From Corynebacterium liangguodongii (lineage in GTDB: Bacteria > Actinomycetota > Actinomycetes > Mycobacteriales > Mycobacteriaceae): DNA of 64,000 nucleotides. Position 1 is the stretch's first letter. The number at the start of each line of letters is the position of its first letter. The stretch lies in assembly GCF_003070865.1 (NCBI RefSeq), contig NZ_CP026948.1, forward strand, positions 62,001 through 126,000, given 5' to 3'. The notes beneath the pieces are model-generated. The model was not told where the DNA came from. It saw nothing but the letters and a program-made list of their open reading frames with translations, and searched no databases. Of this stretch, positions 6,851 to 35,565 are shown in pieces. Both the position numbers and the translations under genes were made by a program.

Positions 6851-7029
6851 AGCTCTCTTACTCGGATCCGCGCCGAGCCAGTTGGCCTTCGGTAGTTCTC
6901 GGTAACCGGGGAGTGCCGGCGCCGCTACAGAACACTCGAAGTATATTTCCTAGACAAAACAAACAAGGTGCACTACGGTAGTCGTCAGTGTTCTGGCAGG
7001 AAAGTGTCATACTAGCTGGAAGGTTCCCC

Positions 7030-8654
7030 ATGCCTCGTACTCTTAACAAGCTGGCGGCTGCCATTGTGATAACTCTGTTGGCCACCTGTACACGTCCTGT
7101 TGCATCTGCGCAGTCAGCGTTATCGGCGTGGGCCTCATCGGCAGAGTCTTCGGATGGTGTGGCAGTGCCTGACGTGCAGTCAGAGGCTCGTGGGCCTTTC
7201 GCGGTATGGGGTCTTCCTACCCCGCCGGGGGCAGAAGACTATCAGGTCAATCAGGCCTCAGATGAAGAACTCAACCCCCAGGGGCTGGAATCTTGGCATC
7301 CTACTCCTTATCCGAACGCCGAGATCACCGAAGGGCGTATGCGTTCCGATCGGGAGAAAGTGCCGGAAGGCTTTTCCAAGGCCGATGCCGATAAAGCGGA
7401 GGTTACCGAGGCGCGTTTAAGTCCTAGCGGCGCCTCACGTCTACAGGCACGGCAGGAGTGCGGTGTGTACTGGCCGTCTTGGTTCGAAGTGTGCGGCGCG
7501 ATCAAATCCAAATACGACAGTATCGGCGGCCCGTCCAGTTTCCTCAACTTACCGAAGTCGAACGAACTTACCAACCCCGACGGGGTAGGTAAACGCTCCG
7601 AGTTCCTCAACGGATTCATTTACTGGCATCCTACAACTGGTGCCCATAGTGTCAGCCTCCCAGTTTCTTTGGTGTGGCAGCGGCACGGGTGGGAGCAAGG
7701 TTTCCTAGGCTACCCCACTACGAGTGACATGGCGTTGGGTGATCAGTGGTTCAAGCAGGACTTCCAGGGTGGGCACGTCTACACCCATAACGCGCTTCCC
7801 GCTTCCCAAGCCAGCATCCAGGGCGCAATCTACGACAAGTGGCAGTCCATGGGAGCGCAAGACAGTTCGCTTGGCTACCCAATCAGCGATGAACTGACCA
7901 CCCCGACGGCATCGGGAGGTACAACGTGTTCGAAGGCGGAATGATCTACTGGACGCCCACAACTGGATCGCACGAAGTCCTTGACCTTCCTCTAATGATC
8001 TGGGCATTGAAGGGGTATGAGAAGTCAAAATGGGGATATCCGACAGGTACTCCTCAATTGGCTAGGGACGCCCCGGTAGTTGTCGAGCAGCAATTCAGCG
8101 GCGGGCACATGAACGTTTTCGAGGAATTTGAAACTTCAGGCGAGACAGAAATAGGCAATAAGACCGTGGCGAACCTTGTGATCGACCTGCTAAAACAACA
8201 TGGCGTGGAAGTCCCAGGTGAAGCTCAATCGGCAGCGTCAAGCAATGACCCCTTGCGCAGGTCTGCAAGTAAATGCCCCATTCCAGATTCAACGCAGCCA
8301 CAATACGGCACTATCACGATTCCCCCTAGTTATGATTACTGGGCGTGCATTGATGGTTTCAGGGATTGGCCCCACGCCGGATACCATGACTACTGTACGA
8401 AATCGCCCGACCAATTCCCAGCACCTGGGAAGAACGCTGAGTTTAGCGGCGCGTGCGCAAGGCACGACCAATGTATGGAAGCATCTGACACCCGAGGGCA
8501 AGGGTACGGGGCATGCAATAATCAGCTATTCCGCGAGATGGACACTGTTTGCACGTCAGTCTATCCAAAGTCTGACGCTCGGCGTGGTGGGTGTACCAAG
8601 TTCCGCAACACGTATTGGGCTGCAGTGACAGGCCGTCACGTTAGGAACCTTTGA
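7030..8654 (+). pseudogene. Frameshifted secreted LGFP-repeat protein with C-terminal phospholipase A2 domain
   Basis: The first reading frame begins at ATG 7030 behind GGAAGG. It encodes a signal peptide (cleavage near VASA/QS), a conserved region with CGVYWPSWFEVCGAI, then LGFP repeats such as LGYPISDELTTP. Around 7905 the frame shifts and continues from about 7926 (NVFEGGMIYWTP) to 8654. Comparison with the paralogue at 31759 shows CCACCCC-GACGG here versus CCACCCCAGACGG there, a one-base loss. The distal part ends in a prokaryotic PLA2-like domain with HDYC, GACARHDQC (His-Asp catalytic pair) and further cysteines. LGFP repeats are known from corynebacterial mycolyltransferases and bind the envelope. 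If the shift is real, the product lacks PLA2; a sequencing error is possible. Confidence 0.85.
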
Positions 8655-8665
8655 GGTGGCTCAAA

Positions 8666-9178
8666 ATGACGCGGCAAGAGTTTCAGTTCGAAGGCTTCCT
8701 GATAGGGACGTCCATCTTCGTTGTCATCCCGACTGTGCTCACGCTTGTCGTGTTCTTTGCCATCGGGCCGAAGTCCTACCGACCCACGTTGTGGAAGATA
8801 TGTCTTATCGGGGTGCTGACCGGGTTTTTTGCCGCAGCGGCGTGGTTGTCGTGGGATCCGCATAGCCCCATGAGCGAGGTGCTGTACCGTGGGGCGCCCA
8901 CGCAGTTTTCCCCTTGGCAGATCGTTGGTTGCGGTGCGACACTGATCATCGCTAACGCGCTCACTATATGGTGCTGTGAACGCGCTCCGAGTGGAGTTAT
9001 GGCACTTCCTATATCCACGACCGCAGGATTTGCGACGGCGTTTTCGTTTGGGGTCTCTTTCGGTGTATCCACGCAGGAAGCAGTGGGAATCTTTCTTTCC
9101 TACGCGGGAGTTGGGACGCTGCTGCTTCTCACCAACACGGTGTGGTTCATCGTCCTGACTTCCACCCAGTCTCCCTAG
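8666..9178 (+). CDS. Small polytopic membrane protein, candidate partner/immunity protein
   Basis: 170 residues with about five hydrophobic segments and no recognised family. The ATG at 8666 is preferred because GAGGTGG stands six bases before it; a TTG overlapping the previous stop (8651) is also open. It directly follows the LGFP-PLA2 gene in the same direction, 11 bases past its stop, so co-translation is expected. A multispan membrane protein placed right after a secreted lipase-like effector fits an immunity or envelope-protection role, but that is inference only. The amn gene follows 45 bases later with its own promoter. Confidence 0.6.
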   Translation: MTRQEFQFEGFLIGTSIFVVIPTVLTLVVFFAIGPKSYRPTLWKICLIGVLTGFFAAAAWLSWDPHSPMSEVLYRGAPTQFSPWQIVGCGATLIIANALTIWCCERAPSGVMALPISTTAGFATAFSFGVSFGVSTQEAVGIFLSYAGVGTLLLLTNTVWFIVLTSTQSP

Positions 9179-9223
9179 GTGGTTTACAGGGGTCCCCACG
9201 CGGTCTTGAGTACGCTGGGCTGC

Positions 9224-10615
9224 ATGGAGAAGGTCGGAAGCGTTGATGAGGGCGTCGATAAGCTGATCGAGCTCTACGAGGCCTCGTGCGAGCTGGCGCG
9301 GCGCGCGATCCCGGCTGGTGACGCCGATGCGTACGAGGGCGTGCGCTACCCGAAGATCGCCGTGAAGATCGCCACGTGGGTGCCGGTGGATCGCCGCGAG
9401 CCCTTCGGCTACGTCGACGAGGCCGGGACGTATTCGGCCGCCCTGTCGCGCCCTGACCTGATGGCCCCCTACCTGCGCAGCCAGCTCGGCGCGCTGTGCG
9501 CGAACTACGATGCCGTCATCGAGGTCGGCTACTCGGAAATTCGCATCCCCCCGGAGTACATCCGCGGCGTTGACGGGCTCGCGGAGGTGCGCGCCAACAA
9601 CCCCGCCGGGGTGCCGCGGCCCACGCTTGACGACGTCCACGACGGCATCATCGACGGCGAGTGGGAATCCTTCCACGGCGCCGAGAAACCCCTGTTCCAC
9701 TTCGGCCCGCAGCGCTTCGACATCGCGTGCGCCCGCATCGAGCACTACACCGGCATCGAGGTGGACACCGTGCAGCGCTACATCTTGTTTACCAACTACG
9801 CCATGCACACCCGCGAGTTCGTCGCCTTCGGGCTGCGCGCGATGGAAAAACCCGACTCCCGCTACACTCGCCTCGTGCTGCCTTCCGGCGAGGTCGAGCC
9901 GGGGGAGGACCCCGACGATATTGACCTCGGCTCGCCGCGCCAGATGCCGCGCTACGACCTCGTTACCGACGACGGCGACGGCATCACCATGATCAACATC
10001 GGGGTGGGCCCGTCGAACGCGAAGACGATCACGGATTGCCTGGCGGTGTTGCGCCCGGAGGCGTGGATCATGATCGGCCACTGCGCTGGCTTGGACGCGC
10101 GCATGCGCATCGGCGACCTCATCCTGGGCAACGCCTACGAGCGCCACGACAACCTGCTCGATTCCCACATCCGCCGCGATCAGCCGATCCCCGCCGTGCC
10201 CGAGATCCAGCGCACGTTGGAGAAAACGGTGGAGAAAATCTACGGGGAGGACCCCTCGCTCATGCGCACCGGCACAGTGCTCTCCACCGGGGACCGCAAC
10301 TGGGAGTGGAAGACGCCGCAGGAGCTGTGGAACTGGCTGCGCGGCTCCACCGCGACCGCCGTGGACATGGAATCGTGCACCATCGCCGCCAACGGGTACC
10401 GCTACCGCGTGCCCTACGGCACCCTACTCGCGGTCTCCGACCTGCCGCTGCACGCCGTGCCCAAGCTGCCGGCTGGTGCGCAGGCGTTCTACTCCAACTC
10501 GAAGGAGGCGCACGTGATGTGCGCGGTGAAGGCGATGGAGAAGCTGGCGAAGCACCCCGAGCGGCTGCGCACCCGCAAGCTGCGCCGCACCATCGGCGAG
10601 GTCCCCTTCCGCTAA
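9224..10615 (+). CDS. amn: AMP nucleosidase
   Basis: 463-residue enzyme hydrolysing AMP to adenine and ribose 5-phosphate in purine salvage. Full-length match to the Amn family: an N-terminal regulatory part, and a C-terminal nucleoside-phosphorylase-like domain with MIGHCAGLDARMRIGDLILG and the catalytic-region segment ATAVDMESCTIAANGYRY. The ATG at 9224 is chosen because TACGCT (a -10 box) lies at 9211-9216, giving a leaderless or nearly leaderless transcript. The same arrangement is preserved in the decayed copy at 6607. The stop overlaps the ATG of the sirtuin gene. Confidence 0.93.
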   Translation: MEKVGSVDEGVDKLIELYEASCELARRAIPAGDADAYEGVRYPKIAVKIATWVPVDRREPFGYVDEAGTYSAALSRPDLMAPYLRSQLGALCANYDAVIEVGYSEIRIPPEYIRGVDGLAEVRANNPAGVPRPTLDDVHDGIIDGEWESFHGAEKPLFHFGPQRFDIACARIEHYTGIEVDTVQRYILFTNYAMHTREFVAFGLRAMEKPDSRYTRLVLPSGEVEPGEDPDDIDLGSPRQMPRYDLVTDDGDGITMINIGVGPSNAKTITDCLAVLRPEAWIMIGHCAGLDARMRIGDLILGNAYERHDNLLDSHIRRDQPIPAVPEIQRTLEKTVEKIYGEDPSLMRTGTVLSTGDRNWEWKTPQELWNWLRGSTATAVDMESCTIAANGYRYRVPYGTLLAVSDLPLHAVPKLPAGAQAFYSNSKEAHVMCAVKAMEKLAKHPERLRTRKLRRTIGEVPFR

Positions 10616-11547
10616 TGACGTTTAGCGACCCGGCCATCGAGATGGCCCACCGCAGCGCGATCCGTTCCATCGAGCGCGTCGTCGCCGAGACCGTCGAGCC
10701 GGCCGAGCCGGGCGCCGCGCTCGACTACGTCGTCAGCATGCTTGGTGATCCTCAGGTCCTCGTGCTCACCGGGGCCGGGGTGTCTACCGAGTCCGGCATC
10801 CCCGACTACCGCTCGGAGAACGGCCGGCTTTCACAAGGCCGGCCGATGACCTACCAGGAGTTCGCCCACGCCCCGGAGGCGGTGCGTCGCTACTGGGCGC
10901 GCGCCTTCGTGGGCATTCGCTACCTGCGCACCGCGGCGCCGAACCGCACCCACTTCGCGCTCGTCGAGCTCGAGCGCGCCGGGTTGGTCAGCGCAATCAT
11001 CACACAAAACGTCGATGGGCTGCACCGCGAGGCCGGCAGCGCCCGCGTCATCGAGCTTCACGGAAACATGGGCAGCGTGTCCTGCCTGGACTGCGGTGTG
11101 AATGAGGAGCGCACGCTTTTCGACGCCCGCCTCACCGCCGCCAACCCCCACTACGCCGAGTCGGTCCGCGTGACAGGTTCCATGCTCAACCCCGACGGCG
11201 ACGTCGAGCTGCGCGACGGCGACGTCGAGCGCTTCCGCATGATCTCCTGCCGCTCCTGCGGCGGGCAGCGCCTCAAGCCGTCCGTGGTCTACTTCGGCGA
11301 ATCGGTGCCCAGGCGCCGCCGCGACGAGGCCGCGCGGTTGCTCGCGGAATCCACCGGGGTGATCGCGCTGGGCACCTCGTTGGCGGTGATGAGCGGATAC
11401 AAAATCGTGCTTGATGCCCTCGCCGCACACAAGCCAGTCGCAGTGATCAACGGCGGCCCGGGCCGCGCTGACCCGAAAGTGCCGGTGGTGTGGCGCACGG
11501 GCGTCGGCGACGCCCTCGACGCGGTGCTCGACAGCCTCGAGCTGTAA
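10615..11547 (+). CDS. Sir2-family NAD-dependent protein deacylase
   Basis: 310-residue sirtuin. NAD-binding GAGVSTESGIPDYRS, the TQNVDGLH motif with catalytic His in IELHGNMG, and the zinc ribbon CLDC...CRSC are all present, so it should be active on acyl-lysine. An N-terminal extension of about 40 residues precedes the Rossmann core. The start ATG overlaps the amn stop (TAATG), indicating coupling with AMP nucleosidase. This pairing of adenine-nucleotide turnover with an NAD-consuming enzyme may be only positional. Confidence 0.92.
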   Translation: MTFSDPAIEMAHRSAIRSIERVVAETVEPAEPGAALDYVVSMLGDPQVLVLTGAGVSTESGIPDYRSENGRLSQGRPMTYQEFAHAPEAVRRYWARAFVGIRYLRTAAPNRTHFALVELERAGLVSAIITQNVDGLHREAGSARVIELHGNMGSVSCLDCGVNEERTLFDARLTAANPHYAESVRVTGSMLNPDGDVELRDGDVERFRMISCRSCGGQRLKPSVVYFGESVPRRRRDEAARLLAESTGVIALGTSLAVMSGYKIVLDALAAHKPVAVINGGPGRADPKVPVVWRTGVGDALDAVLDSLEL

Positions 11548-11565
11548 GGGGACGGGAGACGTACT

Positions 11566-12168
11566 GTGGTGGCTATGGACGCAGTACTATTCGGGCTCTC
11601 CGGCGTCATCCTCGCGCCGCGCTCCGAGGCGGGGCGCCGAGCGGTCGAGCGGGCGGCCGGCGCGGGCGATACGGCGCGGTTCTGGCGTGCCTACGCGGAG
11701 CTGCGCCCCGACCTCGAGGTCGGGGAAGTCTCGGACGCGCGGTGGTGGCAGCAGGTGGGGCTGCGCGCCGGGCTGGCCGACATCGACGTCTACGAGGCGA
11801 TCGCCGCGGACGCGGCCTCGCTTGCGTCCGAGCGGCGGGACATGGTGGATCTGCTGCTCGAGCTGGTGGATTCCGGCTACGCCGTGGGGGTGATCGATAA
11901 CGTCCCGCTGGGTGTCGCCACGCATGTGCGCGAGTGCCACCCGTGGCTTGCCGAGCTCGACGCGGTGACTTTTTCGTGCGACATCGGGGTGGGAAAGCCG
12001 GACGCGGCCGCCTACCTCGTCGCGCTCGACGCGATGGGAGCTAAGCCCGGCTCCACGCTCTACGTCGATGCGTGCGATGAGTGGCTCGCCGCGGCGGCGG
12101 CCCTCGGAGTGCGCACCGTGCGCTTTACCGAGACGACAGACCTACGAGAGGACCTAACAAAGCCATGA
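11566..12168 (+). CDS. HAD-like protein with degenerate catalytic motif
   Basis: 200 residues with a haloacid-dehalogenase-type layout: GKPDAAAY near residue 140 and YVDACDEWLAAAAALG as motif IV. However, motif I reads LFGLSGV where LFDLDGV is usual, so both catalytic aspartates (nucleophile and acid/base) are replaced by Gly and Ser. The rest of the fold looks intact and the frame is clean. It is therefore probably a non-hydrolytic HAD homologue, perhaps a binding protein. It starts at GTG 11566 behind GGGAG; an ATG at 11575 is the alternative. It is coupled to the next gene by an ATGA overlap. Confidence 0.75.
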   Translation: MVAMDAVLFGLSGVILAPRSEAGRRAVERAAGAGDTARFWRAYAELRPDLEVGEVSDARWWQQVGLRAGLADIDVYEAIAADAASLASERRDMVDLLLELVDSGYAVGVIDNVPLGVATHVRECHPWLAELDAVTFSCDIGVGKPDAAAYLVALDAMGAKPGSTLYVDACDEWLAAAAALGVRTVRFTETTDLREDLTKP

Positions 12169-12689
12169 TCTACACCTTTGAGGGGCACACCCCACGGATC
12201 GATCCGAGCGCCTACATCGCGCCGGAGGCCACCATTATTGGCAACGTCGTCATCGGCGCGGGGGTGAGCGTCTGGCCCGGTGCGGTCATCCGCGGCGACG
12301 TCGGCGCCATCCGCATCGGCGCGCGCTCCAACATTCAAGACGGCGCCGTGGTCCACGTGGACACCGGCGGGGAGACGATCCTGGGCGAGGACGTCACCGT
12401 CGGGCACCTCGCCATGGTGCACGGCTGCCACGTCGAGCCCGCCTCCCTGATCGGGATGAACTCGACAGTGCTTTCCCGCTCGCGCATCGGCGAGTGCACG
12501 ATCGTCGGCGGTGGAGCGGTTGTGCTCGAGGGGCAGGTCGTCCCGCCCTTCTCGGTGGCCGCTGGGGTGCCGGCGAAGGTGCGCAAGGAGCTGCCGGGCT
12601 CCTCGCGTACCGATCGGATCGCCCACGCCGCCCATTATGTTGAGCTAGGGCGCCGCCACCGCGAGGGGCTCGCGCAGCACGAGGTCTAG
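12165..12689 (+). CDS. Gamma-carbonic-anhydrase-like hexapeptide protein
   Basis: 174 residues with left-handed beta-helix hexapeptide repeats from residue 10 to about 130, including DGAVVHVD and HLAMVHGCHV, which supply the metal-binding histidines of the gamma-CA/YrdA family. Its activity could be carbonic anhydrase or a related, unproven one. It starts at ATG overlapping the HAD stop. Its 3' end overlaps the convergent ROK-family gene by 45 bases, an unusually long tail-to-tail coding overlap. Confidence 0.87.
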   Translation: MIYTFEGHTPRIDPSAYIAPEATIIGNVVIGAGVSVWPGAVIRGDVGAIRIGARSNIQDGAVVHVDTGGETILGEDVTVGHLAMVHGCHVEPASLIGMNSTVLSRSRIGECTIVGGGAVVLEGQVVPPFSVAAGVPAKVRKELPGSSRTDRIAHAAHYVELGRRHREGLAQHEV

Positions 12690-13721
12690 GGCGACGGCGC
12701 GGGCGATGTCGCGCACGACCTCGCGGTGGGTCGGGATCATCCGCAGCTCGACGGAGGAGCCGGCGGCGCCGGACGCGCGGACGGCGCGGGCGAAGGGGCC
12801 GGGGGCGAGGGGGTCGTCGATAAACGCGCTGCCCGCCACGACGATCGTGGAGGGGGAGTGGGCCGCGGCGAGGTCTGCGGCCAGTACGCCGAGCTCCCGG
12901 GCGCGGCGGTCGAGCGCGCCTCGGGTGAGCTCTTTGCAGGTGGCGTCGGTGACGGCGTCGATAAGCGTGCGAATGTGGGGCTTGTCAATGGAGTCGATCA
13001 GCCCTTCCGTGGTGAGGTCCTCGCGCTCCACAGCGACCGGCTCCACGCCCCCCGGGGTGGAGATCGCGCAGCCGAGCGAGTCGTCGGCGAACAGGGCCAT
13101 CACCGCCTCCGCGTCGAGCGCGGCGGAGGATTGAAGCTCGGAGCCGACGATGGCGGCCGCGGCGGAGGTCACCACAACGGGCACGGAGAACTGCTCGCGC
13201 AGCTGGGCGCCGATGTCCACCCCGCGCCACCCGAGGTTCGGGGCGTAGACGTCGCCGTCGCCCGTGACCGTGCCGGAGGTGGTCACCCCGACGGTGGCCA
13301 GCGGGCGGTGTACGTCGGCGTTGAGCCTATTGAGCGCCGCCATGACGTGCTGGATGAAATCGTCCTGGCTCATCGCGGCGACAGGGATGTCGACGTCGAT
13401 GCTGCGCAACGTGTGGCCCTTGAGATCGAACAGGGCGATGTAGGTCGACTGTGTGCCCACCGCGATGCCGGCGTGGATGGCCTGCGGCACTGCCAGCTCC
13501 AGCGGAATCGTCGGGCGCCCGCGCCCCGCAGCGCGGGCCAGGTCGGGGCGCTCGGCGACGTAGCCCGCCGCGGCTAGGGCGGCGATGGCGCGTGTAATCG
13601 TGGGTTGGCTCAGCCCCGTCGCCTCCACGAGCTCGCTTCTCGATGTCAGCTCCCTCAGCCGAACGAGGTGCAGGCACTTCGCCGCCGGACTCGACGGGAG
13701 GGAGAAAGGGGCCGAGGACAT
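12645..13721 (-). CDS. ROK-family transcriptional regulator
   Basis: 358 residues. The N-terminal winged helix-turn-helix (residues about 15-60, with TGLSQPTITRAIAAL as recognition helix region) is followed by a ROK/sugar-kinase-like domain with VGVTTSGTVTGDG. This suggests a repressor or activator responding to a sugar or sugar phosphate. The ROK zinc motif CGCxxxGC is not evident, so ligand handling may be altered. A TATATT -10 box lies five bases before the ATG, consistent with a leaderless message. It is divergent from the DUF885 gene, a possible target. Confidence 0.83.
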   Translation of the reverse strand: MSSAPFSLPSSPAAKCLHLVRLRELTSRSELVEATGLSQPTITRAIAALAAAGYVAERPDLARAAGRGRPTIPLELAVPQAIHAGIAVGTQSTYIALFDLKGHTLRSIDVDIPVAAMSQDDFIQHVMAALNRLNADVHRPLATVGVTTSGTVTGDGDVYAPNLGWRGVDIGAQLREQFSVPVVVTSAAAAIVGSELQSSAALDAEAVMALFADDSLGCAISTPGGVEPVAVEREDLTTEGLIDSIDKPHIRTLIDAVTDATCKELTRGALDRRARELGVLAADLAAAHSPSTIVVAGSAFIDDPLAPGPFARAVRASGAAGSSVELRMIPTHREVVRDIARAVALDLVLREPLAVAAP

Positions 13722-13819
13722 GATGAATATAATAACAACCTGATAGGCAGCTTAACGCACGGGCGCCGGTGTAGGAACCAAATGGCAGTTGGGTGGACAG
13801 TTGGATAGACTCTGCCACC
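13722..13819. promoter_or_regulatory. Divergent promoter region (ROK regulator / DUF885 gene)
   Basis: The 98-base gap contains an AT-rich patch with TATATT on the minus strand just ahead of the ROK gene. TAGACT (13806-13811) lies on the plus strand eight bases before the DUF885 ATG. Both look like actinobacterial -10 boxes giving very short or absent leaders. No clear palindromic operator was resolved. Confidence 0.5.
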
Positions 13820-15490: not shown

Positions 15491-15733
15491 GTATCTGGCA
15501 AAACGCACGACGCGGATCAGGCAGATGAACTGGATACGGGCCACAGGTGGTCCTGCTGCGCCAGCGACGGCCCGCGCGCTCGAAGATGGCACCGAGGACG
15601 ACGGATGCGGGCGCTACGATGAGCCAACGGGTTACCGTACTCACCCAGGAAATGCTACTCCGGGTGCCCGCTATGGCCGGCAGAAGTATTCCATATCTAA
15701 GTATCGGCCACGCGGGTGTGTCATTATAGGCCA

Positions 15734-16333
15734 ATGACTAACTCCGATTCACACGCCGCGGAGCGCCCCCGCGTCGGCCGCCCGAAGCGCCGGGCCGCCA
15801 CCGAGGAAAAGATCTACCGTTCGGTGCTCAAGATCGCCCGGGAGAAGGGCTTCGGCGCCGTGACCATTGACGCCGTCGTGGCCGACTCCGGGGTGGCAAA
15901 GACCACGATCTACAGGCGCTACGACGATCGCGTGGACATGCTTATCGACGTCCTGCGCCACCTCACCCTCGATGTCCCCGCCGAATACCCCACCGACCAA
16001 AAGGGATTCGAGCGCTACATCGTCAACCTCCACGACCACCTGGAGAACAAGATCGGCTTGCGGCTCATCGGCGCGCTGGTCTCGAGCTCGGAGGAGTTCC
16101 TCGAGGAGTGGCGCGAGCGCGTCGTCGACGAACTGGTCTCGGGGTTTAGCCGCTACTTCTCCAAGGGCGTGAAGGCGGGCAGCTTCGCCGAAGGGGTTAA
16201 CGGGGGTGTCATCGCCACCATGGTCGTCGGCAGCGTGCTCACGCGCGCGGTGTTCGACCTGAAGAACCGCGAGCGGCACGCCAAGGCCGTAGCCGCCATG
16301 CTGTGGCCGATCATCTCGGTGAAGACGCAATAG
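15734..16333 (+). CDS. TetR/AcrR-family transcriptional regulator
   Basis: 199 residues. The N-terminal helix-turn-helix spans residues about 20-65 (VTIDAVVADSGVAKTTIYRRY), the hallmark of TetR regulators, followed by a helical ligand-binding domain. The ATG at 15734 has TATAGG just upstream as a possible -10. It is convergent with the APC permease gene, only seven bases apart, so the two need not be functionally linked. The ligand is unknown. Confidence 0.88.
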   Translation: MTNSDSHAAERPRVGRPKRRAATEEKIYRSVLKIAREKGFGAVTIDAVVADSGVAKTTIYRRYDDRVDMLIDVLRHLTLDVPAEYPTDQKGFERYIVNLHDHLENKIGLRLIGALVSSSEEFLEEWRERVVDELVSGFSRYFSKGVKAGSFAEGVNGGVIATMVVGSVLTRAVFDLKNRERHAKAVAAMLWPIISVKTQ

Positions 16334-16340
16334 CGGCGCG

Positions 16341-17810: not shown

Positions 17811-17898
17811 GTTCCCAGAGAATAGTGTGTGACAGTTCAAAGAAGGAAAATGGCCGCGGTGGTGCTCCCGCGACCTTCACGGCTCTGGTGCCAAAACC

Positions 17899-18175: not shown

Positions 18176-18180
18176 CTCAA

Positions 18181-18933: not shown

Positions 18934-18981
18934 GGTCAAACGGTTCACGGCAGACGTACCCGCTCGAGTCCACCGTCTTAC

Positions 18982-24094: not shown

Positions 24095-24190
24095 GTATTT
24101 TCAGCTCCTTCGCGATTTGGACTTGAAGTGCCGTCGATTTTTGCACTTCTCAAAGTATTAACATAAGGATGGCCGCCTTCCTACCAGACC

Positions 24191-26457: not shown

Positions 26458-26557
26458 AGTAAAGAGCTTGCTGGAAACGTTCGTTCCGGGTGGCGATGGC
26501 GCGGCGCAAAGCCTTCTTGAGGCGTGGCAGACGGCTCACCCTGAATCGTCCTAGTGC

Positions 26558-28807: not shown

Positions 28808-28857
28808 GGGTTCCAGGGTAGCGGGCGCGGTGTCGCCGCAAAGTCATACACCAGGAG

Positions 28858-28941
28858 TCATACACCCAAAGGCAGATAGATCGCCGTTGGAAAAGGAGTG
28901 ACCAATCGGTGACGGTGAACTATCTGCCTTTGGGTGTATGA
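28858..28941. repeat. Perfect 22-bp palindromic element
   Basis: TCATACACCCAAAGGCAGATAG (28858-28879) and its exact reverse complement (28920-28941) enclose a 40-base centre. A partial third arm, GTCATACACCAGGA, precedes it at 28842-28855. It lies between the hrpB start and the sulfur-module operator. It resembles a REP/MITE-like mobile palindrome or a very stable RNA hairpin; no T run follows either arm. Confidence 0.8.
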
Positions 28942-29021
28942 GTCTCGCCGGGCCGCCCCGCGCCGGGGGAAGATGTGGCACTCGGGCCCTAGCCCCGACA
29001 ACCCCACCCCCTTGCGCCCAA

Positions 29022-29041
29022 TATACCCCCCGGGGTATAGT
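29022..29041 (+). promoter_or_regulatory. CsoR/CstR-type operator overlapping the -10 box of the sulfur module
   Basis: The palindrome ATACCCC-CC-GGGGTAT (29023-29038) matches the GC-rich A/T-flanked operators of CsoR-family repressors. TATAGT (29036-29041) serves as -10 and ends seven bases before the ATG at 29049. Repressor binding would therefore cover the promoter. The likely regulator is the CstR-like gene at 30820. Confidence 0.75.
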
Positions 29042-29048
29042 CACGCTC

Positions 29049-29201
29049 ATGTGTTACCCGACGACATGCAACACGTGCCACAAGACCACCTGGGCCGGCT
29101 GCGGCCAGCACATCGACAGCGTCAAGGCGCAGGTCCCCGCGAACCAGTGGTGCACCTGCCCGCGAGAGGCCCCCAAACCTAAGTTCCGGCTCTTCGGATA
29201 G
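29049..29201 (+). CDS. Small cysteine-rich protein, first gene of the sulfur module
   Basis: 50 residues beginning MCYPTTCNTCHKTTWAGCG and ending in a basic tail. Six cysteines lie in the pattern C, CNTC, C, CTC, a zinc-ribbon or thiol-carrier look. It is a known type of uncharacterised actinobacterial small protein. The -10 TATAGT just upstream predicts a leaderless mRNA starting at or near this ATG. Thirteen bases separate it from the CoA-disulfide-reductase gene, so it should share regulation and may handle sulfane sulfur or metal. Function not shown. Confidence 0.7.
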   Translation: MCYPTTCNTCHKTTWAGCGQHIDSVKAQVPANQWCTCPREAPKPKFRLFG

Positions 29202-29213
29202 GAGAAAAGTCCC

Positions 29214-30818
29214 ATGACAACCACAGTCATCATCGGCGGCGTCGCCGGCGGCATGTCCGCCGCCACCCGCCTCCGCCGCCGCGACGAGGACATGGAGATC
29301 ATCGTCCTCGAGGCCTCCGGCTACGTTTCGTTCGCCAACTGCGGCCTGCCCTACCACCTCTCCGGCACCATCGAGCAGCGCGAATCGCTGCTGCTCCAGA
29401 CCCCCGAATCCCTCAACTCCCGTTTCAACCTCGACGTCCGTGTCAACACCCGCGCGACGAAGATCGACCGCGACGCTCAGACCGTGACCACCGAGGCTGG
29501 GGAGACCATTTCCTACGACTACCTCGTGCTTTCCCCGGGCGCGACCCCGGTGCGCCCGCCCATCCCCGGGATCGAGCGCACGCTGAGCCTGCGCACGGTC
29601 GAGGACCTGGACGCCATCAAGGCGGCAACGCAGGGCGCTTCCAGGGCCGCGATCATCGGCGGCGGCTTCATCGGCCTCGAGGTCGCCGAGAACGTGGCGC
29701 ACCGCGGCGTCGAGGTCACCATCATCGAGGCCAGCCCCCAGATCATGGGCCCGCTGGATCCCGAGATGGCCGTCATCGTGAAGAAACGCCTCGAAGACAA
29801 TGGCGTCACGGTGCTCACGTCTACCGCCGCCGCGGAGTTCACCGAGCAGGGCGTGACCCTGAGCGATGGGACCACCATCGACGCCGACGTCGTCATCGCC
29901 GCGATCGGCGTCAAGCCCGCCAGCACACTCGCCTCCGAGGCCGGCCTCGAGGTCGGCGAGCGCGGCGGCATCGTCGTCGACGACCACATGCGCACCTCCG
30001 ATCCGCGCATCTTCGCCGTCGGCGACGCCACACAGAAGCGCGACGCCGTCAATGACGAGCCGACATTGGTGCCGCTCGCCCAGACCGCCAACCGCCACGG
30101 CCGCCTAGTCGCCGACGTGATCACCGGGCGCGACACCGCCGCCCGCCCCGTGCTCGGCACAGCGGTTGTGGGCCTGTTCGGCCTGGCTGCGGCATCGGTG
30201 GGCTGGAACGAGAAGCGCGCCCGCGCCGCTGGCCGCAACGTGCGCACCGTCTACCTGCACCCGTCCAACCACGCCGGCTACTACCCGGGCGCGAGCCAGA
30301 TCCACCTCAAGCTTGTCGTCGACGCCGACACGGATGCCATCCTCGGCGCCCAGGCCATCGGCGAGGACGGTGCGGATAAGCGTATCGACGTCATCGCCAC
30401 CGCCATGCGCGGCGGGTTGAGCGCCTCCGACCTGGCAGACCTCGAGCTCGCCTACGCCCCGCAGTTCGGTTCCGCGAAGGACCCGGTCAACATGGCCGGC
30501 TTCATCAACGACAACATCGCCGGCGGCGAGCGCACGGTGGCCTACCACGAGATCGAGAAATACAAGGAAGACGGCTGGCAGCTTGTCGACGTCCGCACGC
30601 CCGCCGAGTACTCTAAGGGCACCATCACCGGGGCGATCAACATCGAGCTCGATTCGATCCGCGACCGCATCGACGAGTTCGAAGGCCAGAAGGTCGTGGT
30701 GTTCTGCCAGGTCGGGCAGCGCGGCCACACGGCGGCCTCCCTGCTGGCGGGCCGCGGCATCGAGGTCGCTAACGTCGGTGGAGGGTATCTCACGTGGAGC
30801 TTTGGTCAGGAGGTCTAG
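29214..30818 (+). CDS. CoA-disulfide reductase/persulfide reductase with C-terminal rhodanese domain
   Basis: 534 residues. The N-terminal FAD domain is VIIGGVAGGMSAATRLRR, the redox cysteine is in SFANCGLPY, the NAD(P)H domain is AIIGGGFIGLEVAENV, and a second FAD contact is IFAVGDATQ. Then comes the dimerisation domain and, from about residue 440, a rhodanese domain with active-site CQVGQRG. This fusion (CoADR-Rhd type) reduces CoA persulfides or polysulfides and moves sulfane sulfur. A good ribosome site (AGGAGAAAAG) precedes the ATG. It sits between the small Cys-rich gene and the CstR-like repressor in one operon. Confidence 0.9.
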   Translation: MTTTVIIGGVAGGMSAATRLRRRDEDMEIIVLEASGYVSFANCGLPYHLSGTIEQRESLLLQTPESLNSRFNLDVRVNTRATKIDRDAQTVTTEAGETISYDYLVLSPGATPVRPPIPGIERTLSLRTVEDLDAIKAATQGASRAAIIGGGFIGLEVAENVAHRGVEVTIIEASPQIMGPLDPEMAVIVKKRLEDNGVTVLTSTAAAEFTEQGVTLSDGTTIDADVVIAAIGVKPASTLASEAGLEVGERGGIVVDDHMRTSDPRIFAVGDATQKRDAVNDEPTLVPLAQTANRHGRLVADVITGRDTAARPVLGTAVVGLFGLAAASVGWNEKRARAAGRNVRTVYLHPSNHAGYYPGASQIHLKLVVDADTDAILGAQAIGEDGADKRIDVIATAMRGGLSASDLADLELAYAPQFGSAKDPVNMAGFINDNIAGGERTVAYHEIEKYKEDGWQLVDVRTPAEYSKGTITGAINIELDSIRDRIDEFEGQKVVVFCQVGQRGHTAASLLAGRGIEVANVGGGYLTWSFGQEV

Positions 30819-30819
30819 G

Positions 30820-31080
30820 GTGAAATTCGACGAGGCGGAGATAAGGCCGTCGATAAGCAGGCTCAAGCGTGCGCGCGGGCAGCTCGACGCCGTAATCCGC
30901 ATGATGGAGGAGGGACGCGACTGCGAGGAGATCATCACACAGCTCGCGGCCGCGGACAAGGCGGTAAGCCGCGCGAGCTACCAGGTGCTTGTGCGGATGA
31001 TGGAGCGCTGTTTGACCACCGACGGTGTGGATAGTCCAAATGTTGCCGACATGGAGAAGATGTTCCTCTCTTTCGCCTGA
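30820..31080 (+). CDS. CsoR-family repressor, CstR-like (per/polysulfide sensor)
   Basis: 86 residues, all-helical DUF156 family, starting at GTG directly after the reductase stop. The sensing cysteines are Cys35 (RDCEEI) and Cys64 (MERCL), 29 apart as in CsoR/CstR. The copper-ligand histidine expected four residues before the second Cys is Met60 here, so copper sensing is unlikely and thiol persulfide sensing is favoured. The neighbouring CoADR-rhodanese gene and the palindrome at 29023-29038 support autoregulation. The family is certain; the CstR subtype is inferred. Confidence 0.85.
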   Translation: MKFDEAEIRPSISRLKRARGQLDAVIRMMEEGRDCEEIITQLAAADKAVSRASYQVLVRMMERCLTTDGVDSPNVADMEKMFLSFA

Positions 31081-31092
31081 CTAAGGGCTAAG

Positions 31093-31638
31093 ATGAGCGT
31101 CGTCATGAGACGCCTATTCGCCGCCGTCTTGCCGCCGGACGAGGTCAAGGAGCACCTTGTCCGCGCGTTGCGCCCCATCCGCGAGCTCTCCTCCGAGCTG
31201 AGGTGGGTGGATCCCGATACGTGGCACCTCACAATGGCGTTCTACGGCAACCAACCAAATGACGCCGCCGCGGTGACCGACCACCTTGCCCAAGCCACAG
31301 CTTTTCGACGCCCCTTGCGCCTCCACCTGAGAGGAGCGGGGGCGTTTGATCGTCGTACCCTCTGGATCGGAGTCGGCGGGGACAAGCCGCAGCTGCGCGA
31401 GCTGATGGCGGATTGTTCGGTGGAGGTTGACAAGCGGCAGCGGGCCCACCTCACGGTTGCCAAACGTTGTAGCCGCACCCGCGATGTGTGGCTGATGGAT
31501 GATCATTCCCGGGCCCTGTCTGTGTACTGCGGTCCCGAGTTCTGGGTCGATGAGGTCCACCTCATGGAGTCGCACCTGGGTAAGGGGCGCGGTGGCGGAC
31601 CGCGCTACGAGATCGTGGATACGTTTTACCTGCGCTAG
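31093..31638 (+). CDS. thpR: RNA 2',3'-cyclic phosphodiesterase (2'-5' RNA ligase family)
   Basis: 181-residue 2H phosphoesterase. The two catalytic HxT motifs are WHLTMAF (about residue 44) and AHLTVAK (about residue 118), with the usual bilobal spacing. Family members open 2',3'-cyclic phosphates on RNA; a tRNA-processing or RNA-repair role is typical. It starts 12 bases after the repressor stop, possibly in the same transcript, though the function is unrelated. It is the last core gene before the LGFP island. Confidence 0.88.
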   Translation: MSVVMRRLFAAVLPPDEVKEHLVRALRPIRELSSELRWVDPDTWHLTMAFYGNQPNDAAAVTDHLAQATAFRRPLRLHLRGAGAFDRRTLWIGVGGDKPQLRELMADCSVEVDKRQRAHLTVAKRCSRTRDVWLMDDHSRALSVYCGPEFWVDEVHLMESHLGKGRGGGPRYEIVDTFYLR

Positions 31639-31758
31639 GAGGTTCGTGTGGGCAGTTTTAGAGAACATTTTTGCAGATTGTACTGCGGCATTGACAGGCA
31701 GCTTGTAGCCTAAGGGCAGCCAGCGCACATCACAACACCAGGAATTCAGAGGAATTCA

Positions 31759-33426
31759 ATGAAACTGCAGGTAAAGAAGTATCTAGCAGCTTTGTCCATC
31801 CTTGTCTTCATGGCCGCGCATCCCACTGCCGCCACAGCCCAGACCGCCTCATCAGGCTCATCCTTACATGACGGCATCTCCCCACCGGAGACGAATGAGG
31901 GGCAACCTATACCGGATACGGCCGGAGAACCTATAGCAGTACCGTTGGAGGGTCCTTTCGCCGAGTGGGGTATCCCGACTCCTCCCGGGGCTGAAGGCTA
32001 CGAGGTTAACCAGGTCACGCAGGAAGAACTCAATCCCCAGGGCCTGGATCAGTGGCACCCCACTAACGATCCACAAAGCGAGATCATTCCGGGGCAGATG
32101 CGCTCGGACAAAGAAGAGGTCCCGGCAGGGGTCAGCAAGGCTGATGCAGATCAAGCTGAGGTTAAAGAGGCCAGGCTGACCAGCCCGGATACCCCTACGC
32201 TGAATGCCCGACCAGGATGTAGCGTGTATTGGCCGGCACCGTTTGAGGTCTGCGGCGCAATTAAAAATCTCTACGACTCCATCGGTGGACCAACCAGTTT
32301 CTTGCTTCTTCCGAAGTCTAATGAGCTGGTCAACCCGGACGGGGTGGGAAGGCGCTCCGAGTTTGTTAACGGGTTTATCTACTGGCATCCCCGCACGGGT
32401 GCGCACAGTGTGAGCATCCCCGTGTCCACGGTGTGGCAGCGGCACGGGTGGGAAAACGGGTTCCTTGGCTACCCCACCACCAGCGACATCTCACTGGGCA
32501 ACCAGTGGTACGTCCAACACTTTGAAGGCGGACACGTCTACACGCATAATGCGCTACCTGCTACGCAGGCCAGCATCCAGGGAGCTATCTACGACAAGTG
32601 GCAATCCATGGGCGGACACAACAGTGATCTTGGCTTTCCCATCAGTGATGAGTTGACCACCCCAGACGGAATCGGACGCTACAACGTCTTCGAAGGCGGA
32701 ATGATCTACTGGACACCACAACACGGAGCACACCCGGTTACGGATCCTGTGCTTCTTGATTGGGCCGCAGCGGGTTACGAGAAAAGCTCCTACGGATACC
32801 CCACGGGAGACCCGAAAGACGAGGGGGTATCTGTCACTCAAGACTTTGAAGGTGGCACTTTGGAGTCTTTCAAGGTAGAAGAGATGCCAGGTGGTGCGCT
32901 CATCGGTACTATACCTTACCTGGAGTTTCCCAGTGACCAGCTAGCAGCAGAGTTCTTCGACCGTGTGGAGGCTGGACTGGAAAGTATCCCTAAACCGGAT
33001 TCGGTTAGTCTCCAAGCGGCAGGGAAGAGGTACGGACCTTGTGAACTTTCGATAGACTCCCCGCATGCTCGCAAAAGCTCCGCATTTAACGCGGTGGGCT
33101 TCAAGCCCCGCACGAAATGCTCTGAAAGGGTACTTAAGGTAATGCACACTAATACGTTGCGCTATAAGTACTTTGCAACATGGCGAAAGGCACCAAATCT
33201 AAGAGGCAGGTATGACCCCGCTCCAGATTACAAGTACAATCAAAATTCCAGCCTCCCGTATGAGTACTCAACTCTAGATTTGGAACAGGATTGTGCTGGT
33301 CGAGGTGTTGAAACCTTGTTCGTCGGCGTAACAGAAGGAAAGATTGTTACCACGACTGGTACTTTTTACGCACGCGTGTATAGCAAACCCAGCCGCGTAG
33401 GATGTAAGATCCCCGGCAATGACTGA
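31759..33426 (+). CDS. Secreted LGFP-repeat protein with unique C-terminal domain
   Basis: 555 residues, intact. A signal peptide (cleavage near ATAQ) is followed by an N-terminal region closely related to the 7030 gene (PTPPGAEGYEVNQ, MRSDKEEVP, CSVYWPAPFEVCGAI). LGFP repeats follow from about residue 170 to 360 (PKSNELVNPDGVGRRSEFV, LGFPISDELTTPDGIGRYNV). From about residue 375 it diverges completely from the paralogue. The last 175 residues have four cysteines (PCELS, TKCSE, DCAG, VGCKI) and an SPHARKSS segment, with no PLA2 motif and no family I can name. LGFP repeats bind the corynebacterial envelope, so the protein is probably displayed there. It overlaps the next gene by eight bases (ATGACTGA). 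Confidence 0.85.
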   Translation: MKLQVKKYLAALSILVFMAAHPTAATAQTASSGSSLHDGISPPETNEGQPIPDTAGEPIAVPLEGPFAEWGIPTPPGAEGYEVNQVTQEELNPQGLDQWHPTNDPQSEIIPGQMRSDKEEVPAGVSKADADQAEVKEARLTSPDTPTLNARPGCSVYWPAPFEVCGAIKNLYDSIGGPTSFLLLPKSNELVNPDGVGRRSEFVNGFIYWHPRTGAHSVSIPVSTVWQRHGWENGFLGYPTTSDISLGNQWYVQHFEGGHVYTHNALPATQASIQGAIYDKWQSMGGHNSDLGFPISDELTTPDGIGRYNVFEGGMIYWTPQHGAHPVTDPVLLDWAAAGYEKSSYGYPTGDPKDEGVSVTQDFEGGTLESFKVEEMPGGALIGTIPYLEFPSDQLAAEFFDRVEAGLESIPKPDSVSLQAAGKRYGPCELSIDSPHARKSSAFNAVGFKPRTKCSERVLKVMHTNTLRYKYFATWRKAPNLRGRYDPAPDYKYNQNSSLPYEYSTLDLEQDCAGRGVETLFVGVTEGKIVTTTGTFYARVYSKPSRVGCKIPGND

Positions 33427-33931
33427 CAATATTCCCCGCGTTGTTGCCCCGCCTCGTATCTATCTGGCGTATGTGAAACGTTTTCGCCTAGATACTCCCC
33501 GCCATCCGCTACAAATCCTGGCTGGGGCTAGTTTCGAGGAAAAGACGGTCCTCGACTGGATCGATGAGGGGAAACGGATAAACCACGATATTTGGTACGA
33601 GGACATTCCCATCGATGATTACCCTCATTCCGGCGCCGCACCGCGTGAAATCCTCGTCCAATTCACCGGCCCCTTTATGGACGAAGACCCCTGGAACCGG
33701 GATCTTCAATGGTCGGATCCGGTAGGACGTAAGGCTCGTGTCCCAGGAGATTTCCTGGGAATCGTGCGTCCCCAACCTGAACGGGAAGGAACACTAAACG
33801 AAGACGGCTACTTAGGCGATAACATGTACCTGTGGCGGGTCCCGTGCCCATGGAAGAGTCGTTTCTTGCTGTCACCGTTCACAGAAAGAAGTAACGAGAA
33901 CATTAATTACGGTCGGCCTTACTCAGTTTGA
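33419..33931 (+). CDS. Hypothetical protein coupled to the LGFP gene, candidate immunity/partner
   Basis: 170 residues, rich in Pro, Asp, Glu and Trp, with no signal peptide or membrane span, so presumably cytosolic. It starts at ATG inside the last codons of the LGFP gene, which ensures coupled translation. I recognise no family; WYEDIPIDDYP and DEDPWNRDLQWSDPVGRK are distinctive segments. Its position matches that of an immunity or cognate partner of the LGFP C-terminal domain, but that is inference. Base composition is less GC-rich than the core, as in the rest of this island. Confidence 0.6.
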   Translation: MTDNIPRVVAPPRIYLAYVKRFRLDTPRHPLQILAGASFEEKTVLDWIDEGKRINHDIWYEDIPIDDYPHSGAAPREILVQFTGPFMDEDPWNRDLQWSDPVGRKARVPGDFLGIVRPQPEREGTLNEDGYLGDNMYLWRVPCPWKSRFLLSPFTERSNENINYGRPYSV

Positions 33932-34302
33932 GTAAGGGGCGAGCCGGAGGCAGCGAGGTGCTTCCGGGAAAAATCATCGCTGAGCTCAGCTTTGACTTCT
34001 GGCGCTTCCTCTTAAGCAGTTACTACCAGGCGAGCATTTGGCCTCAGGTAGAGAAGGCCTTGAAGCAAAAGCCCGGCAGCAGACAGCATTTTGAAGCTCT
34101 TGTAGCTACTATCTACGAGATGCGAAACAGGTGTTCTCACCACGAATCCATCGTTCAGCAAAGCGATATATCCCGCGAAACTGACTATCTCGACTCAATT
34201 GATAACGCTATCCAGATGGTGGCAAACTTCATTGATCCTGATGCTGCGACATGGATTAAGGGCAATTCCCGAGTCCCTACTGTCCGAGCGCAACGACCAT
34301 AG
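33928..34302 (+). pseudogene. C-terminal part of an Abi-like (HEPN) protein
   Basis: About 124 residues with GKIIAELSFDFWRFLLSSYY and EMRNRCSHHESIV, the hallmark end of actinobacterial Abi_2-type abortive-infection proteins. RNRCSH fits the HEPN RNase motif Rx4H. Full proteins are clearly longer, and the N-terminal part is replaced here by unrelated sequence. The only start is a TTG overlapping the previous stop, so expression is doubtful. Probably a 5'-truncated phage-defence relic trapped in the LGFP island. Confidence 0.7.
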
Positions 34303-34389
34303 CTGCCTACCGCAACACCAAGGCCGTCATCGACACTGGGGTGTACTTATAGACACAATGGCGCCCCTCAGCCACCACGCATTCCTCCG

Positions 34390-34983
34390 GTGAGGTTGGC
34401 TAATGGTTTGGATCGGCATTCGCGGCCTCTCCACGGGGACCCGTTTGCTTTGCGAAAACTCGTCTGGACCGGGGATCTCCACTGGGCTGACCGAAAACCT
34501 CGGCGGAAAGTAGACAATAACGTTTGCCCAGATAATAAGCACAAAACAGGCCATGCTCCGCAGGACCTAACCCCCTTCGCAGCAATTACAACCGCGAAAT
34601 ACGACGATGGGGGTGTCGGCATTCCAGCCAGATACGTTTATGACCCCTCGAAAGGAAACTTGCACGACTACTGTTCGTCTTCACCTGACTTCTTCGACCC
34701 GACGGCATCGCCAGATTACCCCTACGCTGAACGTGCTGTTATCGCGGATTTGCGCGGTTCATGCGCCCGTCATGATCTATGCTATGAGCAATATGATGCC
34801 GATTCGGGAATGCGCTACGCTTGCAACCGGCAGTTCGAAAAAGACCTCATCACAGTGTGCAACAACGTGTATGTAGACACCCCTCGAAACCTTCCCCCAT
34901 GCCGCAGGAACGCCCGCATGTACTACGACGTAGTGGTAGTAGCACACCCTTCCCATTGGGAAGGGCACATAAGTAACCCTTAG
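34390..34983 (+). CDS. Orphan phospholipase A2-domain cassette without secretion signal
   Basis: 197 residues from GTG. The first 45 residues are non-descript and have no signal peptide. The C-terminal 130 residues are a prokaryotic PLA2-like domain similar to the end of the 7030-8654 gene: LHDYCSSSPD, GSCARHDLCYEQ with the His-Asp pair, YACNRQF and a further Cys. With no LGFP scaffold or export signal it looks like a displaced C-terminal toxin-type cassette. It is followed nine bases later by a lipoprotein gene. If translated alone it would stay in the cytosol. A true start is uncertain. Confidence 0.65.
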   Translation: MRLANGLDRHSRPLHGDPFALRKLVWTGDLHWADRKPRRKVDNNVCPDNKHKTGHAPQDLTPFAAITTAKYDDGGVGIPARYVYDPSKGNLHDYCSSSPDFFDPTASPDYPYAERAVIADLRGSCARHDLCYEQYDADSGMRYACNRQFEKDLITVCNNVYVDTPRNLPPCRRNARMYYDVVVVAHPSHWEGHISNP

Positions 34984-34992
34984 AGGAAAAGC

Positions 34993-35565
34993 ATGACTAA
35001 GACCTGCGTTTACAGACGCCAAAAGCAGCTAGCCGGGGCCGTATGTCTCACCGTTTTTGCGATTACAGTGCTGCCATCCTGCGGCAACCTTGTATACACG
35101 GACATTGAGGGGAAAACAGGGGTAGCCCTAAATGCAAGTAGCGAAATCGAAATCTATGTTCAGCCTTGCGGCACGAGGATAGACCAAATCACCATATCCG
35201 GGGAGTTGAAACAACCAACCAATGAACCCAACGATACCTCAGCTCCGTCCACAGGGGGTAATCCTGATTTTGGGAAGCTGAAAGCCGATGTTCCCCAACA
35301 GGACCTGTTTGCTGTCAACCTCAGTAGTCCCACCGCCCCATGGAAAATCGAATCGCCGATCAACCTGCCGGCAGATGAATCCGCGTGGCTTCTCATTAGT
35401 GCATTCTCGTCTAGTCAAGATAAAGAGACCGCGGGGGTAGCAGTGCAAAAAGAGTCGCTCCTCCAACTTCAGCCTGGTGAAATTCTCATCGGCAAAAGTA
35501 CAGTTATAGGAGGGTCTGGGACCAGCATTGTCACACAGGAAGAGTTCAGCCAATGTGCTGACTAG
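34993..35565 (+). CDS. Lipoprotein of unknown function next to the PLA2 cassette
   Basis: 190 residues. An N-terminal signal with lipobox VLPSC (about Cys31) predicts anchoring on the outer face of the membrane. The mature part is rich in Ser, Thr and Pro with two further cysteines (QPCGTR, SQCAD), one at the very C-terminus. GAGGAAAAG stands directly before the ATG, nine bases after the PLA2 stop, so both are co-translated. A surface lipoprotein beside a phospholipase cassette is a plausible immunity protein; no homologue is recognised. Confidence 0.6.
   Translation: MTKTCVYRRQKQLAGAVCLTVFAITVLPSCGNLVYTDIEGKTGVALNASSEIEIYVQPCGTRIDQITISGELKQPTNEPNDTSAPSTGGNPDFGKLKADVPQQDLFAVNLSSPTAPWKIESPINLPADESAWLLISAFSSSQDKETAGVAVQKESLLQLQPGEILIGKSTVIGGSGTSIVTQEEFSQCAD

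What the first reader, a model, noticed from the sequence alone, without database searches (positions are those of the whole stretch)
6988..35565. Two-locus LGFP-scaffold family with swapped C-terminal domains: a possible polymorphic toxin/immunity system
The secreted proteins at 7030-8654 and 31759-33426 share signal peptide type, a two-cysteine region (CGVYWP/CSVYWP...FEVCGAI) and LGFP repeats, then change abruptly into unrelated C-termini (PLA2 domain versus a four-cysteine domain). Each is followed immediately by a small gene of unknown family. LGFP repeats are known to associate with the mycolate/arabinogalactan envelope. A constant export and wall-binding part plus variable tips plus adjacent small genes is the hallmark layout of polymorphic toxins, but I know of no described LGFP-based system. 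A simple exoenzyme family is the main alternative.
Basis: partly seen in the sequence, partly recalled or inferred. Interest (0 to 1): 0.82.

Follow-up and report, generated by a model that had tools for sequence, protein, structure and literature searches.

The report
LGFP-scaffold swapped-tip toxin–immunity system
Corynebacteria and some relatives appear to make exported, wall-binding proteins with interchangeable toxic tips, each tip paired with its own next-door protector gene, which would be a so far undescribed way for these bacteria to fight one another.

Summary
Both loci carry an exported LGFP scaffold with unrelated tips (PLA2; four-Cys), each followed by a gene of unknown family. 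Correction: 7030-8654 is not one gene; it is frameshifted. From 242 Corynebacterium genomes I collected 68 intact scaffold proteins with nine tip types. The next gene tracks the tip: homologous in 41 of 240 same-type pairs and 0 of 1138 different-type pairs; 0 of 2000 shuffles reach 41; upstream genes show no link. 27 neighbour families, 13 with several members, each keep to one tip type. In 15 of 15 held-out broken or orphan modules with both parts recognised, they match. Neighbours of PLA2 and C92 tips are membrane or lipoproteins (24 of 24), those of types 0, 2 and 4 soluble (32 of 32). Tips swap inside the third LGFP repeat. The scaffold also occurs in Nocardia, Rhodococcus and Streptomyces, there also with NucA/NucB DNase tips. 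Best reading: a polymorphic toxin–immunity system on an LGFP scaffold not described in the papers I searched. Toxicity, neutralisation and delivery are untested.

The parts
7030..7944 (+). Locus 1, first frame: signal-peptide-like start, scaffold, LGFP repeats up to the third, where the frame stops (the ORF listed starts at 6988)
7926..8654 (+). Locus 1, second frame: rest of the LGFP region and PLA2-like tip (about 8265-8651); the gene is broken as sequenced
8651..9178 (+). Candidate immunity gene of locus 1: 175 aa, hydrophobic; same family as the neighbour of a homologous PLA2 tip in L070
31759..33426 (+). Locus 2: intact 555-aa LGFP-scaffold protein with a type-2 (four-Cys) tip at about 32860-33423
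32641..32760 (+). Swap junction in the third LGFP repeat; DNA similar to L025 (93% over 92 nt), L026 (93% over 82 nt) and locus 1 (87% over 83 nt), then similarity ends
33419..33931 (+). Candidate immunity gene of locus 2: 170 aa, soluble; homologous genes follow type-2 tips in L058, L060, L062 and L132
34390..34983 (+). Orphan PLA2-like (type-1) module without a scaffold (open from 34303)
34993..35565 (+). Lipoprotein-like gene, neighbour family 3, otherwise found beside PLA2 tips: candidate immunity gene of the orphan module

Best explanation
These are two loci of a multi-copy polymorphic toxin–immunity system. Shown by sequence: an export-type constant scaffold (N-terminal region plus, as a rule, three or four recognisable LGFP repeats) carries one of at least nine C-terminal tip types; tips are exchanged inside the third LGFP repeat; each tip type keeps its own downstream gene families. 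Inferred: the protein leaves by the general secretory route, the LGFP repeats hold it to the wall core of its own or a neighbouring cell, and the tip poisons a competitor. PLA2 and C92 tips would attack the envelope; NucA/NucB tips, and perhaps other tips with soluble partners, the cytoplasm. The downstream product protects the producer in the matching compartment. Locus 1 is a broken PLA2-type toxin gene with a surviving immunity gene. Locus 2 is an intact four-Cys toxin gene with its immunity gene, followed by an orphan PLA2–lipoprotein cassette.
For: Neighbour homology 41/240 same-type against 0/1138 different-type pairs, 0 of 2000 shuffles as high; upstream control 5/299 against 21/1354, 894 of 2000 as high. 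27 neighbour families, none mixed. Held-out modules 15 of 15. Replication outside Corynebacterium 9/33 against 0/267. Neighbour topology uniform by type. 19 of 19 listed scaffold pairs break in the third LGFP repeat. Tip type changes at least 27 times on the scaffold tree of 68, minimum 8. Tip and neighbour share low GC, 0.470 and 0.476, against scaffold 0.534 and flank 0.580. Recognised tips are enzymes listed among polymorphic toxins: PLA2 and NucA/NucB.
Against: No toxicity, neutralisation or delivery data. Most tips, including the window's four-Cys tip, have no known activity. 14 of 27 neighbour families are single members. Several same-type neighbours share no detectable homology (199 of 240 pairs). 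Tip types also cluster partly on the scaffold tree (27 changes against a shuffled mean of 41.7), so part of the pattern is plain inheritance. A crude scan found a signal-peptide-like start in only 49 of 68 (some ORFs lack their first part). Many copies in the genus are broken.
Confidence: 0.87

Rival explanations
1. A family of secreted, wall-bound exoenzymes for nutrition or host contact; the downstream genes are folding helpers, inhibitors or anchors of each enzyme and not protection against the toxins of neighbours.
For: PLA2 and C92-like enzymes also exist as ordinary exoenzymes (general knowledge); no toxicity has been measured; the activity of most tips is unknown.
Against: Soluble neighbours without signal or TM for an exported protein (32 of 32 for types 0, 2, 4), orphan neighbour genes without a toxin and tandem copies, and frequent tip exchange at one place fit toxin–immunity better. 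NucA/NucB DNase tips occur on the same scaffold.
Confidence: 0.08
2. Tips aimed mainly at eukaryotic host cells or predators, with the neighbour only protecting the producer.
For: Many corynebacteria live on animals, and PLA2 can act on any phospholipid membrane (general knowledge).
Against: The scaffold is also in Nocardia, Rhodococcus, Streptomyces and others; LGFP is reported to bind bacterial wall components (passages); dedicated neighbour genes for most tips imply that the tips can harm the producer itself.
Confidence: 0.04

Closest known systems
Polymorphic toxin systems that use a general secretion signal (Zhang et al. 2012, PMC3482391, passages; MafB-type secreted toxins of Neisseria, PMC4287609, listing and start of abstract)
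   Same: Constant exported N-terminal part, variable C-terminal toxin, neighbouring immunity gene, orphan cassettes and several immunity genes in a row; Tox-PLA2 and Tox-NucA occur in the tables of PMC3482391.
   Different: Scaffold of LGFP repeats; LGFP does not occur in the held text of PMC3482391 (300,000 of 357,715 characters). Swap point inside an LGFP repeat. That the label T2SS there means a plain signal peptide is my recollection.
Umbrella (ALF-repeat) toxins of Streptomyces (PMC11062931, passages)
   Same: Actinobacterial, exported, repeat-bearing scaffold with variable toxin domains and downstream immunity genes.
   Different: There ALF repeats, coiled coils and partner lectin proteins; here Pfam finds only LGFP before the tip, and I saw no partner genes like theirs (not searched for).
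MytA/PS1 mycoloyltransferase of C. glutamicum (6swz, 6sx4)
   Same: LGFP repeats of the scaffold match PS1 (E 9.6e-45); those repeats are reported to bind peptidoglycan-arabinogalactan (PMC11299179, passages, citing Dietrich 2020, not seen).
   Different: There the LGFP repeats follow the enzyme domain; here they precede a variable tip, and a family-specific pre-LGFP region is present.

Membership tests
Polymorphic toxin–immunity system | Constant N-terminal export/trafficking part with exchangeable, unrelated C-terminal domains | tested here: met
   Nine tip types on one scaffold, 68 proteins; swap in the third LGFP repeat in 19 of 19 listed pairs; 27 type changes on the tree
Polymorphic toxin–immunity system | Adjacent gene specific to the toxin domain | tested here: met
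   41/240 against 0/1138 pairs; 27 unmixed families; 15 of 15 held-out modules
Polymorphic toxin–immunity system | C-terminal domains drawn from known toxin enzymes | tested here: met
   PLA2, Peptidase_C92, NucA/NucB in 3 of 10 tail regions scanned; most other tips have no known family
Polymorphic toxin–immunity system | Orphan toxin cassettes and extra immunity genes | tested here: met
   Window 34390-35565; L026; additional neighbour-family genes in L062, L069, L078, L117, L119, L122, L128, L132
Polymorphic toxin–immunity system | Tip is toxic and the neighbour neutralises it | not testable with these tools
   Needs expression tests in laboratory strains
LGFP repeat (PF08310) | Profile match over the curated cut-off | tested here: met
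   103.2 and 180.8 bits against a cut-off of 22
Prokaryotic PLA2 (PF09056) for type-1 tips | Profile match over the curated cut-off | tested here: inconclusive
   Window tips reach 16.8 and 27.1 bits against 29.4; 10 of 14 aligned tips match at E up to 0.01, best 8.1e-11; the tip profile finds 1faz at E 1.4e-8
Prokaryotic PLA2 (PF09056) for type-1 tips | His-Asp pair and framing cysteines | tested here: met
   C64, H67, D68, C70 invariant in 14 of 14 rows; that the pair is catalytic is recalled
Umbrella (ALF-repeat) toxins | ALF repeats in the scaffold | tested here: not met
   Pfam finds only LGFP before the tip in the proteins scanned
Type VII (WXG/LXG) toxins | WXG100 or LXG N-terminal domain | tested here: not met
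   Pfam finds no such domain in the proteins scanned

The most novel reading that the evidence does not exclude
LGFP-repeat proteins are a general weapon platform of mycolate bacteria and some other actinobacteria: a freely exported, wall-core-binding scaffold that docks on the walls of rivals and brings interchangeable toxins to, and for nuclease tips through, a mycomembrane without a dedicated injection machine, kept diverse by recombination at a fixed place in the third repeat.
Probability: 0.5. Interest if true: 0.87.

Novelty: new variant of a known kind. Interest (0 to 1): 0.78.

Why it matters
Polymorphic toxins are well known elsewhere, but my paper searches listed none on an LGFP scaffold. 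If true, it gives 27 candidate immunity families and several tip families of unknown activity for direct tests. It also poses a sharp question: how an exported protein without an injection machine gets a nuclease into a cell behind a mycomembrane.

Tried and rejected
Exoenzyme-only reading: set aside as main account because neighbour genes are locked to tip type.

Shared descent of whole loci as the cause of the co-variation: the upstream-gene control shows no link with tip type (5/299 same-type, 21/1354 different-type; 894 of 2000 shuffles as high). Partial inheritance of tips with scaffolds is nevertheless real.

Rows dropped: of the places I fetched 95 regions from 50 genomes. I left out weaker hits (mostly LGFP tails that I took for mycoloyltransferases) and a few contig-edge pieces (G233; G064 C28 and C45). 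76 ORFs counted as intact after leaving out L027 and L146 by hand; 7 with tails under 90 aa and L096 (odd tail) were dropped, leaving 68; 8 near-copies more were dropped, leaving 60, of which 53 had a same-strand neighbour by my rule. Two proteins were split by eye from tip type 1 into 1b. The neighbour listed for L076 3271-4698 looks unrelated; it was kept and dropped. The neighbour of L021 lies on the opposite strand (family 0, its own type) and was not counted.

Against a simple one-to-one picture: L062, L069, L117, L119, L132 and the window carry, beyond the cognate neighbour, a gene of another tip type's family; I read these as orphan immunity genes. In the held-out search (38 loci) 14 loci gave 15 matched modules, 8 only a tip, 5 only a neighbour and 11 neither.
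Full report
What is in the window. The window is bases 62001-126000 of a 2,357,924-bp single-contig genome. At locus 2, 31759-33426 is one open frame of 555 aa with four LGFP stretches. At locus 1 the matching sequence lies in two frames, 6988/7030-7944 and 7926-8654, which meet inside the third LGFP repeat: a broken copy, unless the sequence is in error. The locus-1 scaffold piece is 66% identical to locus 2. The tips are unrelated: PLA2-like against a four-Cys domain without Pfam match. The next genes are a hydrophobic 175-aa protein (8651-9178) and a soluble 170-aa protein (33419-33931); neither has a Pfam family over its cut-off or a PADLOC family, and the 170-aa protein has no NCBIfam match.

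More than two loci. LGFP matches occur at further places of the same genome. L025 holds an intact twin of locus 2. Its DNA is 87-100% identical per 60-nt block from the start codon to about nt 960, unrelated upstream beyond about -60, and unrelated afterwards. Its tip is PLA2-like and its next gene codes for a lipoprotein-like protein of 203 aa. L021 holds a third intact gene with another tip. L022, L024 and L026 hold broken pieces. L026 lacks the scaffold upstream of the junction: 82 nt are 93% identical to window 32657-32738, then similarity ends.

Genus-wide collection. A profile of the scaffold (A2) was run on 242 genomes; 217 have a match at E <= 1e-15, many of them weak matches that I took for LGFP tails of mycoloyltransferases. 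I fetched 95 regions from 50 genomes around the stronger matches. 76 open frames counted as intact and 68 were kept. Their C-termini form nine types: 0 (19 proteins), 1 PLA2 (16), 1b (2), 2 four-Cys (12), 3 Peptidase_C92 (9), 4 (6), 5 DUF6973 (2), 6 (1), 7 (1); 1b was split by eye from the automatic type 1.

Co-variation. In a non-redundant set of 60, 53 had a same-strand downstream ORF of at least 95 aa within 260 bp. Neighbours are homologous (phmmer E <= 1e-3) in 41 of 240 same-type pairs and 0 of 1138 different-type pairs; 0 of 2000 label shuffles reach 41 (mean 7.2, maximum 20). Upstream genes: 5 of 299 same-type and 21 of 1354 different-type pairs, with 894 of 2000 shuffles as high. The pairs are not independent of one another. 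60 neighbours fall into 27 families, 13 with several members and 14 single, and none mixes types. For a held-out test I searched 38 loci or stretches with broken or orphan modules using models made from intact genes only. Where both a tip piece and a neighbour family were recognised, they agree in 15 of 15 modules, including locus 1 (type 1, family 15) and the window's orphan module (type 1, family 3). In 8 loci only a tip, in 5 only a neighbour and in 11 neither was recognised. Some of the 15 come from one genome or are near-copies. A second set, outside Corynebacterium, gave 9 of 33 pairs with homologous tails against 0 of 267 without (25 of 30 proteins had a neighbour).

Compartments. By a simple hydropathy and lipobox scan the neighbour is membrane-bound or lipoprotein-like for type 1 in 15 of 15, type 3 in 9 of 9, type 5 in 2 of 2 and type 7 in 1 of 1. 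It is neither for type 0 in 15 of 15, type 2 in 11 of 11, type 4 in 6 of 6 and type 6 in 1 of 1. The one type-1b neighbour is doubtful, and one type-0 neighbour (L076) looks unrelated. 7 of 68 toxins had no neighbour by my rule. Envelope-attacking tips (PLA2, C92) thus have envelope neighbours; that the other tips act inside the cell is inference.

Swapping. On a quick scaffold tree of 68 rows the tip type needs at least 27 changes (least possible 8; shuffled mean 41.7, so types are also partly clustered). Type 2, the window's type, needs 11 changes over 12 rows; type 0 only 4 over 19. Among 19 scaffold pairs with many shared 6-mers and different tips, DNA similarity ends inside the third LGFP repeat in 19 of 19; the pairs share members and come from few genomes. 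Mean GC is 0.534 for scaffold (68), 0.470 for tip (68), 0.476 for neighbour (61) and 0.580 for flanks (60); scaffold exceeds tip in 66 of 68. Tip plus neighbour therefore behaves like one mobile cassette.

What the tips are. Type 1 is prokaryotic PLA2-like: the tip profile finds 1faz (same sequence as 1kp4) at E 1.4e-8, and the His-Asp pair with its cysteines is invariant in 14 of 14 rows. Type 3 matches Peptidase_C92 and type 5 DUF6973, each over its cut-off in the one protein scanned. Outside Corynebacterium the scaffold occurs in Nocardia, Rhodococcus, Gordonia, Dietzia, Hoyosella, Streptomyces, Saccharothrix and others (a capped list of 80). Of 35 such proteins 30 have a tail of 100 aa or more; 16 of these 30 match a Corynebacterium tip type. 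Three of ten tail regions scanned are NucA/NucB DNases over the cut-off (L160 Nocardia, L175 Streptomyces, L189 Rhodococcus). Tox-PLA2 and Tox-NucA appear in the tables of Zhang et al. (passages). The four-Cys tip of the window stays of unknown activity.

Locus-1 pair. Its PLA2 part is 48% identical to that of L070 and its neighbour 30% identical to L070's neighbour; L070 lies on the contig that names Corynebacterium phocae. So the pair recurs in another species.

How it probably works. Shown: architecture, tip exchange, type-locked neighbours. From published work as cited in PMC11299179 (passages): LGFP repeats of MytA interact with peptidoglycan-arabinogalactan. Inferred: export by the general route (a crude scan found a signal-peptide-like start in 49 of 68), wall docking, intoxication of related bacteria, protection by the neighbour. 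Unknown: passage through the mycomembrane, and whether contact is needed. Streptomyces and Saccharothrix lack mycolates (recalled), so mycolate cannot be the only ligand.

Novelty. Searches of the held library: 'LGFP' with 'polymorphic toxin' (one unrelated paper), with 'toxin' and 'immunity protein' (the same paper), with 'phospholipase A2' (one unrelated); 'LGFP repeat' with 'Corynebacterium' (7 papers) and four LGFP phrases (12 papers), none about toxins by title or start of abstract; 'polymorphic toxin' with 'Corynebacterium' (27 papers, 25 listed); four terms on secreted toxins and immunity in Corynebacterium (127 papers, 25 listed). LGFP is absent from the held text of PMC3482391 (300,000 of 357,715 characters) and from PMC11062931. 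Most subscription papers and bioRxiv preprints are not in this library, so an unseen description is possible. I file it as a polymorphic toxin system on a new scaffold; the functional half of the definition is untested.

Noticed in passing
33928-34302 (+): A 124-aa frame between the locus-2 neighbour and the orphan PLA2 module matches part (positions 128-231 of 309) of the PADLOC model PD-T4-5 (E 1.7e-8) and weakly Abi_2: probably a remnant of an abortive-infection-type gene.
   Followed up: partly
6606-6798 and 9206-9573 (+): Two short stretches before locus 1 are 79% and 80% identical to the start of the gene at 9179-10615, which I read as AMP nucleosidase-like (no family search): locus 1 may sit between a partial duplicate and the full gene.
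   Followed up: partly
L021:4571-5614, L025:8583-9296, and similar ORFs in L058-L061, L063, L071-L073, L075, L085: A protease-like gene (trypsin-like by my reading of its motifs) lies divergently next to scaffold genes of several tip types in close relatives (12 ORFs): it goes with the place, not with the tip.
   Followed up: partly
L159, L163, L167, L181, L190: 5 of 35 scaffold proteins outside Corynebacterium end within 16 aa of the last LGFP repeat: scaffold without a tip.
   Followed up: no
L112:1654-2529 and L140:4033-4920 (-): The neighbour of these two type-0 tips belongs to one family; the L112 one has pentapeptide repeats (PF00805, E 7.3e-17), a fold that mimics DNA in some known proteins (recalled), a hint at a DNA-related target.
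   Followed up: no
L078, L079, L102, L113, L122, L128: Two or more neighbour-family genes of one type in a row behind one toxin gene, like the rows of immunity genes known from other polymorphic toxin systems.
   Followed up: no
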